From Paracoccaceae bacterium (GTDB taxonomy: Bacteria > Pseudomonadota > Alphaproteobacteria > Rhodobacterales > Rhodobacteraceae), in NCBI GenBank assembly GCA_007694945.1, contig REER01000061.1, positions 62,001-126,000 on the forward strand: DNA of 64,000 nt, in the 5' to 3' direction. The position numbers were made by a program, and so were the translations under genes. Under the pieces are notes generated by a model, which worked only from the letters and a program-made list of their open reading frames with translations, was not told the origin of the DNA and made no database searches. Every line of letters starts with the position of its first letter. Position 1 is the stretch's first letter. Shown here one piece after another: positions 28,023-32,664 of this stretch.

Positions 28023-28376
28023 GCGCACCGCTCGCCTCGCTCGAGACAGCGCAGTTTGCGATTACGCGCTATGCAACTGACGCCTGCCTGCATGGCGCGC
28101 GGCCTCGGACCTATACGGATCTGGCGACAGCTTTGGGGCGCGCGACCCCGGTCGCACGTGAGCTGGAACCGACTCTGGCACTCCTGCGCATCGAATGTCA
28201 CGCGCGGGGCCTGCCCAATCTCTGCGCCGTGGTCATTGCCAGCGGCACCGACATGCCCCGCGCGCAAATCCTTCGATACGCTGAGTGCCACATGGTGCGA
28301 CACCGGGCTTGACGAAAACGGCGTGCGGGAGGAGCAGGCGCGGATTCTGGCGTTTGACTGGTGCGGCGTCACTTGA
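28022..28376 (+). pseudogene. broken conserved gene downstream of rpoD (lost start, one-base frameshift)
   Basis: Starting just after the rpoD stop, one frame reads SAPLASLETAQFAITRY and continues with good coding character through RPRTYTDLATALGRATPVAR and ECHARGLPNLCAVVIASGTD to RAQILRYAE. It then meets a stop at 28310. From 28290 the +1 frame continues ATWCDTGLDENGVREEQAR and ILAFDWCGVT, with a stop at 28374-28376. Removing G28285 joins them smoothly as LRYADATWCDTGL. No start codon precedes the first segment; it begins directly at the rpoD stop. I recall an intact small conserved gene at this place in relatives; its function is unknown to me. Confidence 0.7.
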
Positions 28377-28379
28377 CGC

Positions 28380-28853
28380 TCAGCCGTGCTCTTTCAGCAA
28401 CCGCCGCTTCTGCTTGTCCCAGTCGCGCTTGGCCTCGGTCGCGCGCTTGTCGGCCAGCTTCTTGCCCTTGGCGACACCGATCTTCAGCTTCACGAGCCCA
28501 CGATGGTTGAAATACATCACCAGCGGCACCAGCGTCATGCCCGCTTTCGCCGTATCGGCCCAGAGCCGCGCCAATTCGCGCTTTGAAGCCAACAGCTTGC
28601 GCTTGCGCCGTTCCTCATGCCCCCAAGTGCGCGCAGGCGCATATGGCGCGATATAGGAATTGATCAGCCACAACTCGCCATCCTCGATGGCGGCATAGCT
28701 CTCGGCAATATTGGCCTTGCCAGTACGCAGTGACTTCACCTCGGAACCGGTCAGCATGATCCCGCATTCGAGATCGGACTCGATGGCATAGTCGAACCGC
28801 GCCCGGCGGTTCTCGGCGATGATGCGGTAATTCGGGTCTAATGTCTTGGCCAT
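28380..28853 (-). CDS. smpB: SsrA-binding protein SmpB
   Basis: tmRNA partner for ribosome rescue, 157 residues. Family landmarks: [20 protein letters not shown] near residue 14-33, [20 protein letters not shown] (about 33-52), and the C-terminal [20 protein letters not shown] plus KRRLLKEHG tail that enters the mRNA channel. Length is normal. The stop lies 4 nt from the end of the broken gene on the opposite strand. No ssrA gene was seen in the window. Confidence 0.96.
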
Positions 28854-28885
28854 CCACGCCAGATAAGGGGGCGCGCGCGCCCTGT

Positions 28886-29593
28886 CTAGGGCTTGAGCCG
28901 CACCTGCATCGCATTGCCCGAGGATTTGCGCAGCTCGAAGGCCCCGGTCTTGGCCACCAATTCACTCAGCTTCGCGCAGCCATAATTGCGCGCGTCGAAA
29001 TCCGGGTTGGCCGCAACGATGAACTGCCCCAGCGGGCCTAGCGTGAACCATTCGGCATCCTTGTCGATGGCCTGCATCGCGGCCTTGATCAGCGGTACCG
29101 CTTTCGAGGGGGCCGCCTTGCTCTCCTTCGCGGGTGTATCGGGCGCGGCCTCGGGCATAAGGTTCTCGACAAAGATGAAGCGCTTGCATGCCTTGCGAAA
29201 CGCCTCGGGCGTCTTCTGCTGGCCGATGCCATAGACATCCAGCCCTTGCTCGCGGATGCGCGAGGCGAGCCGCGTGAAGTCGCTGTCGGAACTGATCAGC
29301 ACAAACCCGTCGAAGCGACCCGAATGCAGCAGGTCCATCGCATCAATCACCAGAGCGATATCAGAGGAATTCTTGCCCACAGTATTGGCCGGCTGATGAT
29401 GCGGCACCAGCGCCAGCTTGGGCAACATGTCCTGCCAGCCCGACATCTGACTGCGCGAGAAATCCCCGTAGATGCGCCGCACCGAGGCCTCGCCGAGGCT
29501 CGCGATCTCCTCGAAAATCGCCTCGGCCCAGCGCGGCGAGGAATTGTCGGCGTCAATCAACACTGCCAGAAGCGGTATCCCTGCCCGCGCCAT
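28886..29593 (-). CDS. NYN domain (DUF88) protein with C-terminal LOTUS/OST-HTH
   Basis: Predicted RNA-processing PIN-like nuclease, 235 residues. The NYN domain starts with [18 protein letters not shown] (acidic Asp pair, about 8-25), then [12 protein letters not shown] (about 77) and [19 protein letters not shown] (about 96-114), which holds the metal-binding acidic residues. A LOTUS-like domain follows at about 170-232 ([20 protein letters not shown]). This pairing is common in bacteria; targets unknown. The ATG is preceded by GAGGAGA, which is part of the dispersed element at 29601-29628. Confidence 0.88.
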
Positions 29594-30955: not shown

Positions 30956-31291
30956 ATGAACATGCACATCCCGCCACGCGGCATTGACGGACAGACAAGT
31001 TTCGACCGGCGCGAACTCGGCGTGATCCTGTCACTCTATGGCAGGATGGTCGCGGCGGGCGAATGGCGCGACTACGGGATTTCCTGTCTGCGCCACCATG
31101 CCGTGTTTTCCATCTTCCGCCGCACAGCGGAAAACCCGCTTTACCGGATCGAGAAACACCCGGCCCTGCGCCAGCGTCAGGGCATGTATGCGGTGATCGG
31201 GATCGACGGTCAGGTGCTCAAGCGCGGGCATGATCTGGTGCAGGTGCTCAAGGTTCTGGAACGCAAGCTGTTGCGGGTGATCGAGGATTGA
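30956..31291 (+). CDS. DUF2794 domain-containing protein
   Basis: About 111 residues, soluble. Family features: FDRRELGVILSLYGRMVAAGEWRDY (about 20-45, broken here) followed by AVFSIFRRTAENPLYRIEK, RQRQGMYAVIGIDG and QVLKRGHDLVQVLKVLERK. DUF2794 is a conserved alphaproteobacterial family with no assigned function. The ATG at 30956 is used; another at 30962 is in frame. Upstream 30811-30955 is the divergent promoter region shared with the isomerase. Confidence 0.88.
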   Translation: MNMHIPPRGIDGQTSFDRRELGVILSLYGRMVAAGEWRDYGISCLRHHAVFSIFRRTAENPLYRIEKHPALRQRQGMYAVIGIDGQVLKRGHDLVQVLKVLERKLLRVIED

Positions 31292-31329
31292 GGCTTTACA
31301 GCTGCGCGCGCCCCTGCTACGCGATTCCC

Positions 31330-31371
31330 ATGAACACGCTGACACATATCCGCGCCCTGCGACGTCGATAA
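31330..31371 (+). CDS. candidate arginine-rich leader peptide before argD-argF
   Basis: Short ORF ATG..TAA encoding MNTLTHIRALRRR: four Arg codons in thirteen, the last three consecutive and written CGA-CGT-CGA, codons that are uncommon in this CGC-preferring genome. It ends 120 nt before argD, with several mutually exclusive hairpins between. This is the layout of a ribosome-mediated attenuator sensing charged tRNA-Arg. No clear Shine-Dalgarno is visible, which is the main weakness. Inference only. Confidence 0.5.
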   Translation: MNTLTHIRALRRR

Positions 31372-31373
31372 GC

Positions 31374-31473
31374 GACCTGTTTGTTCCCGCGCATCCGCAG
31401 GATGCGCGCCCCTGGCCAATATCTGAAAACCGTAATTGACTTGGCCGCCTGCCTTTGGCAGGTCAGGTATTTT
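31374..31473 (+). promoter_or_regulatory. competing RNA hairpins between the leader ORF and argD
   Basis: Elements in order: GACCTG (31374-31379, 3 nt after the leader stop); a 9-bp perfect stem CGCGCATCC/GGATGCGCG (31388-31396, 31400-31408, loop GCA); GGCCAA (31414-31419) complementary to TTGGCC (31441-31446); and CCTGCC/GGCAGG (31448-31453, 31457-31462, loop TTT), followed by CAGGTATTTT. GACCTG is also complementary to CAGGTC (31459-31464), so it competes with the last stem. TTGACT at 31436-31441 could alternatively be a -35 element. Confidence 0.45.
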
Positions 31474-31491
31474 CCGACAGAGGACACGCCC

Positions 31492-32664
31492 ATGAACGCG
31501 CCCTTCCCTTCGATCCTGCCTACCTATAACCGGTCCGACCTGCGCTTCCTGCGCGGCGAAGGCTCCTGGCTGATCGAGGCAGATGGCCGCCGTTTCCTCG
31601 ACTTGACCTCCGGGATCGCGGTCAATGCGCTGGGCCATGCGCATCCGGCCCTCGTCGCCACGCTCACCGAACAGGCGCAGGCACTCTGGCATGTCTCGAA
31701 CCTCTACCAGATCCCGGCACAGGAACGCCTCGCCGACCTGCTCGTCGCGCATTCGTTTGCCGACACGGCCTTCTTCACCAATTCCGGCACCGAGGCCGCG
31801 GAACTCGCCATCAAGATGGTGCGGAAATACTGGTATGACCAGAACAGCCCGCGCGAGACCATCCTGACCTTCGAGGGCGCCTTTCATGGCCGCTCCACCG
31901 GGGCCATCGCGGCGGCCGGCTCGGAGAAGATGTGCAAGGGCTTCGGCCCGCTCATGCCCGGTTTCAAGACGCTGCCCTGGGGCGATCACGACGCGCTCCG
32001 TGCAGTGCTCGATGACCGCGTTGCTGCCGTGATGATCGAGCCGGTGCAGGGCGAAGGCGGCATCCGCCCGTTGCCGGAGCAATGCCTCAAGGGCCTGCGC
32101 GATCTCTGCGACCAGACCGGCGCTCTGCTGGTGCTCGACGAGGTGCAATGCGGCATGGGCCGCACGGGTCGGCTCTTCGCGCATGAATGGGCGGGCGTCA
32201 CTCCCGATATCATGCTGGTCGCCAAGGGCATCGGCGGGGGCTTCCCGCTCGGCGCCGTGCTGGCCACGGCGAAGGCGGCATCCGCCATGACGGCAGGCAC
32301 GCATGGCTCCACCTATGGCGGCAACCCACTCGCCTGCGCTGTGGGCGCCAAAGTGGTCGAGATCATGACCGAACCGGGCTTTCTCGACTCGATCAGCCGC
32401 AAGGCCGGTCAGTTCCGGCAAGGGCTCGAAAGCCTCGTCGCCACTTATCCCGAGGTCTTCAAGCAGGTGCGCGGCGCGGGTCTGATGCTCGGCCTGAAAT
32501 GCCGCAAGACCAATACCGATCTGGTCAAGGCGGCGCAGGCAGAATTGCTGCTCACGGTCCCGGCCGCCGACAATGTCGTCCGCCTGCTGCCGCCGCTCAC
32601 CATCGCCGAGGATGAGATCGCCGAAGCCCTCATCCGCCTCGACAGGGCTGCACAGAGCCTCTGA
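31492..32664 (+). CDS. argD: acetylornithine/succinyldiaminopimelate-type aminotransferase
   Basis: PLP-dependent class III aminotransferase of arginine biosynthesis, 390 residues. N-terminal [15 protein letters not shown] (about 42-56), the phosphate-binding [12 protein letters not shown] (about 97-108), the [14 protein letters not shown] aspartate region (about 211-224), and the PLP lysine in [13 protein letters not shown] (about 244). The ATG at 31492 follows AGAGGA. Followed by argF after 73 nt containing a hairpin. The argD-argF pairing supports the arginine role. Confidence 0.94.

What the first reader, a model, noticed from the sequence alone, without database searches (positions are those of the whole stretch)
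31330..31491. Candidate arginine leader-peptide attenuator in front of argD-argF
A 13-codon ORF ending Arg-Ala-Leu-Arg-Arg-Arg-stop lies 120 nt before argD. The three terminal Arg codons are CGA-CGT-CGA, rare choices in a genome that prefers CGC. GACCTG, 3 nt after the stop, can pair with CAGGTC (31459-31464), which would break the CCTGCC/GGCAGG hairpin that is followed by TATTTT. A ribosome stalled at the Arg codons would cover GACCTG. A separate 9-bp stem (31388-31408) lies between. This is the classical logic of trp/his/leu attenuation applied to arginine, for which I know no described alphaproteobacterial argD example. The missing Shine-Dalgarno and the weak terminator are the main doubts, and the direction of control cannot be fixed by eye.
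Basis: partly seen in the sequence, partly recalled or inferred. Interest (0 to 1): 0.75.

Follow-up and report, generated by a model that had tools for sequence, protein, structure and literature searches.

The report
Arginine-sensing leader peptide before argD
A tiny gene whose clearest conserved feature is a run of arginine codons sits in front of the arginine-synthesis genes argD-argF in most sampled members of one large bacterial family, and probably lets the ribosome report an arginine shortage to those genes.

Summary
A short ORF with an Arg run (own: MNTLTHIRALRRR) precedes argD in 152 of 189 distinct Rhodobacteraceae loci, plus 14 weaker forms. A nucleotide-first test shows it is coding: 75 of 76 motifs have an in-frame ATG. 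Its Arg codons are CGA/CGC/CGT, almost never CGG. The absent Shine-Dalgarno is explained: the promoter is placed so that the mRNA should start at the AUG (leaderless).

Compensatory change supports two other features: hairpin T just before argD, overlapping a conserved argD promoter (P2); and helix P0 between nucleotides 1-10 of the leader mRNA and the segment after its stop codon. The P0 signal begins at the A of the AUG (145 leaders). No conserved antiterminator was found.

Best reading: a leaderless, ribosome-based arginine sensor acting in cis on argD-argF, ON when charged tRNA-Arg is scarce. Sensor and anatomy are well supported; the step from stalling to expression is inferred. ArgR was found in 0 of 100 family genomes.

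The parts
31295..31300 (+). P1 -35 box TTTACA
   Evidence: Sequence; T at -35 before the leader ATG in 129 of 152 leaders
31318..31323 (+). P1 -10 box TACGCG, 17-nt spacer; its last base is 7 nt before the A of ATG
   Evidence: A TA starting at -12 or -13 before the leader ATG in 138 of 152; C at -1 in 130 of 152. Promoter by comparison, not mapped
31330..31371 (+). Leader ORF MNTLTHIRALRRR-stop, inferred leaderless (transcript starts at 31330)
   Evidence: P0 covariation begins at +1; SD-like 4-mers before 14 of 152 leaders versus 123 of 152 argD starts
31360..31368 (+). Arg sensor codons CGA CGT CGA
   Evidence: codon counts
31330..31336 (+). P0 helix, 5' strand (AUGAACA)
   Evidence: Family-wide hybrid covariation test and 4-mer table; in the window the helix is weak (-5.2 to -6.4 kcal/mol)
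31378..31386 (+). P0 helix, 3' strand (UGUUUGUUC; two possible registers)
   Evidence: duplex for UGUUUGU; the UGUUC register read by eye; GTTC is in 13 of 24 own-genus linkers, 4.0 expected
31388..31408 (+). Hairpin A (9-bp stem)
   Evidence: fold; structure peak here in leader loci (window mean z about -0.8 to -1.3); only weak covariation (p 0.006 and 0.15)
31436..31441 (+). P2 -35 box TTGACT of argD
   Evidence: TTGAC 25-110 nt before argD in 101 of 105 distinct loci; exact in 146 of 151 strict-leader and 34 of 36 other blocks (block chosen by a score that favours TTGAC and GGCA)
31459..31464 (+). P2 -10 region CAGGTC (CA conserved, 17-nt spacer)
   Evidence: C in 91 and A in 84 of 101 at these columns (spacing not selected for). 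Not mapped; the consensus scan finds no promoter because its rule needs a T at position 6
31447..31463 (+). Hairpin T (GCCTGCC TTT GGCAGGT), then CAGGTATTTT; terminator-like
   Evidence: 1 found, 0.3 expected in shuffles; half-by-half covariation p = 3e-17 in 121 non-genus leaders; no test possible inside the genus, where it hardly varies (p 0.18)
31492..32664 (+). argD (class-III aminotransferase; acetylornithine aminotransferase inferred from synteny)
   Evidence: PF00202, 389.7 bits
32738..33664 (+). argF (ornithine carbamoyltransferase)
   Evidence: PF00185 and PF02729; follows argD in 107 of 107 strict-leader loci with at least 1570 nt held from the argD start
30956..31291 (+). DUF2794 gene upstream; not part of the unit
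   Evidence: PF10984; upstream in 23 of 23 own-genus leaders but 0 of 88 others

Best explanation
The region is a cis-acting arginine sensor for argD-argF. RNA polymerase starts at the A of the leader AUG (P1) and makes a leaderless message. A ribosome translates 13-18 codons and meets a run of Arg codons beginning at codon 10-12, all decoded by one tRNA-Arg (ACG anticodon; decoding rule recalled). With ample Arg-tRNA the ribosome runs to the stop, where it covers the segment just downstream, so the 5'-end:post-stop helix P0 cannot form. With too little charged tRNA it stalls at the run, leaving nucleotides 1 to about 12 and the post-stop segment free. P0 can then close, and no second ribosome can load. 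That difference decides whether the P1 transcript is read past hairpin T into argD: ON when arginine is short. P2, inside T, gives a basal level. Supported by comparison: ORF, codons, P1 position, P0, T, P2. Inferred: stalling, ribosome footprints, the direction of control, and the link from P0 to read-through.
For: Leader in 152 of 189 distinct family loci, plus 14 weaker. Coding test. argF next in 107 of 107; the upstream gene changes outside the genus. CGG 3 of 546 at run positions 1-4, against 443 of 1955 in argD. P0: nt 1-8 x linker z -15.8, p 6e-21, no signal for -8..0 or -4..+4; one genome per genus (62) p 2e-10. 4-mer table: GATC 0.92, GTTC 0.81, CGTC 0.93, TGTC 1.00 on the diagonal. 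T: p 3e-17, and weaker without the leader (p 0.002). Five loci (four named Paracoccus) have a leader and no visible P2, so argD there is probably reached from P1. ArgR found in 0 of 100 family genomes. No leader with this promoter before argG (8 loci), argC (6), argJ (7).
Against: No segment was found that clearly pairs alternatively with T. One weak hint, leader ORF x T left p 0.04, was not borne out by its sub-windows (p 0.19-0.87). Linkers even lack GTCAA (0 of 121, 4.7 expected). Ribosome-masked folding favours the expected direction in 18 of 77 leaders, the opposite in 7, neither in 52. The U-tract after T is weak (mean 3.1 T in 8). P2 could feed argD without the leader. T still pairs somewhat in loci without a leader (p 0.005). 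For GACC starts the 4-mer table is not diagonal. The hybrid test is not perfectly calibrated: an argD coding control deviated the other way (z +2.8, p 0.001). 23 of 189 loci lack the leader by the rule used. In the window itself P0 is weak. Nothing was measured.
Confidence: 0.6

Rival explanations
1. Separate small-RNA gene. P1, leader, P0 and terminator T form a self-contained transcript of about 145 nt that always ends at T. argD is driven only by P2. The RNA or its Arg-rich peptide acts in trans, like rnTrpL/peTrpL of Sinorhizobium.
For: T competes with nothing conserved, so it could be constitutive. T lies on the P2 start region and relaxes when the leader is lost. P2 is conserved with or without the leader. 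A leaderless trp leader with trans functions is described in Sinorhizobium (passages of PMC10117765).
Against: argF follows argD in all 107 leader loci that could be checked, i.e. the unit was only ever seen at argD. By eye, peptide sequence outside the Arg run is hardly conserved. Leaders without a visible P2 exist. Arg codons fit a cis sensor of an arginine gene.
Confidence: 0.2
2. Classical trp-type attenuator: GACCTG after the stop pairs with CAGGTC of the terminator.
For: Geometry is right by usual footprints (recalled): a ribosome at the first CGA leaves 31374-31379 about free, one at the stop covers it. Complement strong in L001, L002, L004, L014. Weak own-genus signal, post-stop x T right, p = 0.02, n = 24.
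Against: GACCTG is missing in 20 of 24 own-genus linkers, among them L003, whose ArgD is 88% identical. No covariation outside the genus. The window's own fold keeps the hairpin in both ribosome states.
Confidence: 0.08
3. Rho-dependent version: the C-rich, G-poor linker between leader and T is a Rho loading site, exposed when the leader is translated fluently and hidden by P0 when the ribosome stalls.
For: Linker C 0.41 / G 0.23; its last 20 nt C 0.41 / G 0.14, against C 0.35 / G 0.28 at the same place in loci without leader and C 0.31 / G 0.32 upstream of P1. Leader ORFs coupled to Rho are known: mgtL and speF orf34 (passages of PMC6386406).
Against: The linker is short. No rut predictor was run. 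Rho action in this family was not tested.
Confidence: 0.1

Closest known systems
Ribosome-mediated transcription attenuators (trp, his, leu, ilv leaders; general knowledge)
   Same: Short ORF with a run of the cognate codons before a biosynthetic operon; terminator-like hairpin before the structural gene; sensor codons near the end of the ORF
   Different: Arginine, leaderless start, no conserved antiterminator found, helix P0 on the start-codon region, and a promoter inside the hairpin
uORFC-8-2 motif before cysS in Rhodobacterales (PMC8632094, section 24 read)
   Same: Same bacterial order; short ORF with tandem cognate codons, usually at positions 14 and 15; proposed ribosome-mediated attenuation
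   Different: Cysteine and a tRNA synthetase gene; its first stem contains the sensor codons and its consensus ends in a U run, whereas here no pairing partner of the Arg run was found
rnTrpL / peTrpL of Sinorhizobium meliloti (passages of PMC10117765)
   Same: Alphaproteobacterial leader peptide encoded by a leaderless message that starts with the AUG of the ORF
   Different: Tryptophan; trans functions described there, untested here
orf34 before speF in Salmonella (passages of PMC6386406)
   Same: Two consecutive Arg codons in a short upstream ORF sense arginine through ribosome pausing
   Different: Controls polyamine synthesis; has an SD and a conserved peptide core (HIRRT); high arginine lowers speF through an RNase G-sensitive structure, and translation of orf34 counteracts Rho

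Membership tests
Ribosome-mediated transcription attenuator (trp type) | Short translated ORF with a run of codons for the end product | tested here: met
   coding frame and Arg run conserved, strict form in 152 of 189 loci. Translation itself inferred
Ribosome-mediated transcription attenuator (trp type) | Lies directly before biosynthetic genes for that amino acid | tested here: met
   argD-argF in 107 of 107 strict-leader loci that could be checked
Ribosome-mediated transcription attenuator (trp type) | Intrinsic terminator before the structural gene | tested here: inconclusive
   Hairpin T co-varies but its U-tract is weak and it overlaps promoter P2
Ribosome-mediated transcription attenuator (trp type) | Mutually exclusive antiterminator conserved with compensatory changes | tested here: not met
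   Linker x T arms: p 0.64 and 0.16 in 121 leaders, 0.24 and 0.40 in 62 genera; ORF x T left p 0.04 not confirmed in sub-windows
Ribosome-mediated transcription attenuator (trp type) | Expression rises when the amino acid is limiting | not testable with these tools
   No expression data available
Leaderless leader mRNA (rnTrpL type) | Transcript starts at the AUG of the leader ORF, no SD | tested here: inconclusive
   Strong by comparison: -10 at fixed distance and few SDs; P0 covariation starts at +1. No 5' end mapped
Leaderless leader mRNA (rnTrpL type) | Function of RNA or peptide in trans | not testable with these tools
uORFC-8-2 (cysS) | Tandem Cys codons before cysS | tested here: not met
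   Arg codons before argD
speF orf34 family (DUF2618 core HIRRT) | Conserved peptide core before speF | not tested
   Leaders here are under the 20-residue limit of the family search; gene differs
Any Rfam family | Score above the family's gathering cut-off | tested here: not met
   0 matches in the window; best sub-threshold hit RsmY on the other strand, 17.3 of 57 bits

The most novel reading that the evidence does not exclude
A new layout of ribosome-sensing control. In a leaderless message the first ten nucleotides are both the ribosome landing site and one strand of a switch helix whose partner lies past the stop codon. The Arg run begins at codon 10-12, so that a stalled ribosome frees exactly that strand while blocking the next ribosome. 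The sensed state is read from the 5' end behind the ribosome rather than from an antiterminator ahead of it. It would be an arginine regulator of a family in which ArgR was not found.
Probability: 0.35. Interest if true: 0.82.

Novelty: new variant of a known kind. Interest (0 to 1): 0.72.

Why it matters
Arginine genes of many gamma-proteobacteria are run by ArgR, reported absent from other proteobacterial classes (PMC5343134, passages) and found in none of 100 family genomes searched here. How Rhodobacteraceae sense arginine is therefore open. This leader is a concrete candidate, present among others in named Paracoccus, Ruegeria, Roseovarius and Rhodobacter-labelled genomes, and testable with one reporter fusion. 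If P0 works as proposed, it shows a way to build a ribosome sensor on a leaderless mRNA without an antiterminator.

Tried and rejected
Rejected: (1) Arg run as a DNA site: the frame of ATG, run and stop is kept.
(2) Arg codons held for RNA pairing: R1 x linker p 0.72 in 62 genera, and 0.14 or more for windows over the run.
(3) Peptide acting by its sequence: by eye only the Arg run is steadily conserved (a His-Ile pair before it recurs).
(5) Hairpin T as mere promoter composition: halves of different loci fit worse than own halves.
(6) Same leader at argG, argC, argJ: none with the P1-type -10 in 8, 6 and 7 loci; one argJ locus (L291) has an Arg-rich ORF without that promoter. Only eight genomes were tried.

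Limits of the sample: one search kept the best 80 of 580 relatives. Of 243 family genomes with argD I looked upstream in 90, those with the highest argD scores. Of 105 class genomes outside the family with argD I looked in 27, again the best. Two of these (L208, L209) gave an Arg-rich ORF of other shape, taken as chance, not studied.

Rows dropped: 10 of 199 loci (2 short, 8 duplicates). In most covariation tests, leaders with a linker of 35 nt or less or without a block (145 of 152 used; 121 of the 128 outside the genus). Loci share ancestry; p values are not corrected for it, except that repeats the main tests with one genome per genus. Three loci counted as 'none' (L042, L128, L156) hold Arg-rich ORFs without the promoter features and may be remnants.

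Full report
What is there. The window lies in a Rhodobacteraceae genome (near relatives labelled Natronohydrobacter and Roseibaca). Between a DUF2794 gene and argD-argF (Pfam) is the ORF 31330-31371, MNTLTHIRALRRR.

Conservation. 110 argD loci came from two searches (one search kept the best 80 of 580), then 28 loci and 60 upstream stretches from a family sample of one genome per genus (the best-scoring of 243 genomes with argD) and 28 from the class (one of them in the family). After dropping 2 short and 8 duplicate loci, 189 distinct family loci remain. 152 carry an ORF of 8-24 codons with at least three Arg in four residues. 14 more have a shorter form such as MTQGPFIRRA with promoter features; 23 have none by the rule used. 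In the one-per-genus sample alone a form with three Arg in four is in 23 of 28 and 43 of 60. Of 27 loci outside the family (the best of 105 such genomes), 2 gave unlike, probably chance ORFs. argF follows in 107 of 107 strict-leader loci with enough sequence; the DUF2794 neighbour is confined to the genus (23 of 23, against 0 of 88 outside).

It is translated sequence. Starting from the nucleotide motif alone, 75 of 76 loci have an ATG in the right frame (7 and 14 in the wrong frames), and in 74 of 76 the frame ends 3-7 codons from the motif start. Codons before the run vary freely. Positions 1-4 of the run read mainly CGA-CGC-CGA-CGC (128 of 152, 108 of 133, 108 of 144, 96 of 117). CGG, 443 of 1955 Arg codons in argD, appears 3 times among 546 in those positions. 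Of 34 tRNA genes found in the own genome, 30 were read; Arg anticodons seen were ACG, CCT and TCT, none TCG. That the ACG tRNA (inosine) reads CGU, CGC and CGA is recalled. So the run seems to sense one tRNA.

Leaderless start. Upstream of the ATG the 152 leaders show T at -35 (129), a TA starting at -12 or -13 (138) and C at -1 (130); SD-like 4-mers precede 14 leaders and 123 argD genes. In the window: TTTACA 31295-31300, 17 nt, TACGCG 31318-31323, start at 31330. An independent sign comes from P0: pairing of the leader's 5' end with the linker is seen for nt 1-8 (z -15.8) and not for -8..0 or -4..+4.

Downstream. TTGAC lies 25-110 nt before argD in 101 of 105 distinct loci, with C in 91 and A in 84 of those 101 at a fixed 17-nt spacing; in the larger set it is exact in 146 of 151 strict-leader and 34 of 36 other blocks, mostly 47-63 nt before argD (block choice favours TTGAC and GGCA). 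It is best read as argD's own promoter P2. In leader loci the same block folds into hairpin T. Exchanging halves between loci costs on average 2.3 kcal/mol (121 leaders, p 3e-17; one per genus p 1e-9). T is weaker without the leader (mean z -0.41, n 19, against -1.18, n 127; p 0.002), though its halves still fit somewhat (p 0.005). In the own genus T hardly varies, so the test says nothing there. A second hairpin A (31388-31408 here) shows as a structure peak with weak covariation.

A new helix, P0. The hybrid test between the leader ORF and the post-stop linker gave p 5e-7 and traced to the first 10-14 nt of the message. A plain count shows it. Loci whose nt 3-6 read GATC have GATC in the linker in 92% (48 loci); GAAC, GTTC 81% (21); GAGC, GCTC 53% (19); GACG, CGTC 93% (14); GATG, CATC 57% (7); GACA, TGTC 100% (6). 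The GACC class is not diagonal (GGTC 33%, TGTC 44%, CGTC 56%; 18), nor is GACT (3 loci). Off-diagonal values are otherwise mostly far lower, with CGTC and CATC common in several classes. Own-genus leaders alone give p 7.5e-4 for nt 1-10; the window's copy is weak. The best 3' strand starts within 15 nt of the stop in 92 of 145, under a ribosome waiting at the stop. The Arg run begins at codon 10-12 in 135 of 152. By usual footprints (recalled), a ribosome stalled there leaves nt 1 to about 12 free but blocks another ribosome. Controls for the hybrid test: untranscribed -12..0, p 0.73; Arg run, p 0.72; an argD coding segment deviated in the opposite direction (p 0.001), so its p values are rough.

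What was not found. Outside the genus no segment clearly co-varies with an arm of T; the one weak hint (ORF x T left, p 0.04) fell away in sub-windows. GTCAA, the complement of TTGAC, is absent from all 121 linkers (4.7 expected). Ribosome-masked folding of 77 leaders moved T in the classical direction in 18, opposite in 7, neither in 52. So the anatomy says arginine sensor, but the last step to argD is open: T read-through, Rho on the C-rich linker, or a separate small RNA. Five loci without a visible P2 (L043, L051, L082, L089, all labelled Paracoccus, and unnamed L173) favour action in cis.

Context. ArgR (PF01316) was found in 0 of 100 family genomes while the control rang in 9 of 14. Upstream of argG (8 loci), argC (6) and argJ (7) no leader with this promoter was seen. 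Rfam has no match. Ten paper searches listed no paper that, from titles, abstracts and the passages I looked at, describes an argD leader. The nearest printed analogue is the cysS motif of the same order (PMC8632094, section 24); its supplementary tables could not be read, so an entry there cannot be excluded. The text of PMC11109978 holds neither arginine nor argD, nor does PMC5107571 on Paracoccus small RNAs.

Noticed in passing
L177, L198, L143 upstream of argD: Reduced leaders with only two adjacent Arg read THIRRDI, SHIRRLV, VHIRRG. The speF ORF34 core quoted in PMC6386406 is HIRRT. Likely coincidence, but a His-Ile pair before the run recurs in many leaders.
   Followed up: no
L043, L051, L082, L089, L173: Loci with a leader and a P0-like helix but no visible P2 block; argD starts 105-124 nt after the leader AUG, so the message seems to run straight into argD.
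   Followed up: partly
L125: Leader MKTHATIRRA has a long P0 (about 13 pairs in the fold, AUGAAAACGC with GCGUUUUC and more) and no P2 block: a good reporter candidate.
   Followed up: no
31409-31435 and family linkers: C-rich, G-poor stretch before TTGAC, more skewed in leader loci (last 20 nt C 0.41 / G 0.14 versus C 0.35 / G 0.28 without leader); Rho-site-like.
   Followed up: partly
G063:C57:26015-26797: An argC-like stretch with one internal TGA, scoring below the family cut-off, lies about 1.3 kb downstream of this genome's argD (28054-29208 minus strand).
   Followed up: no
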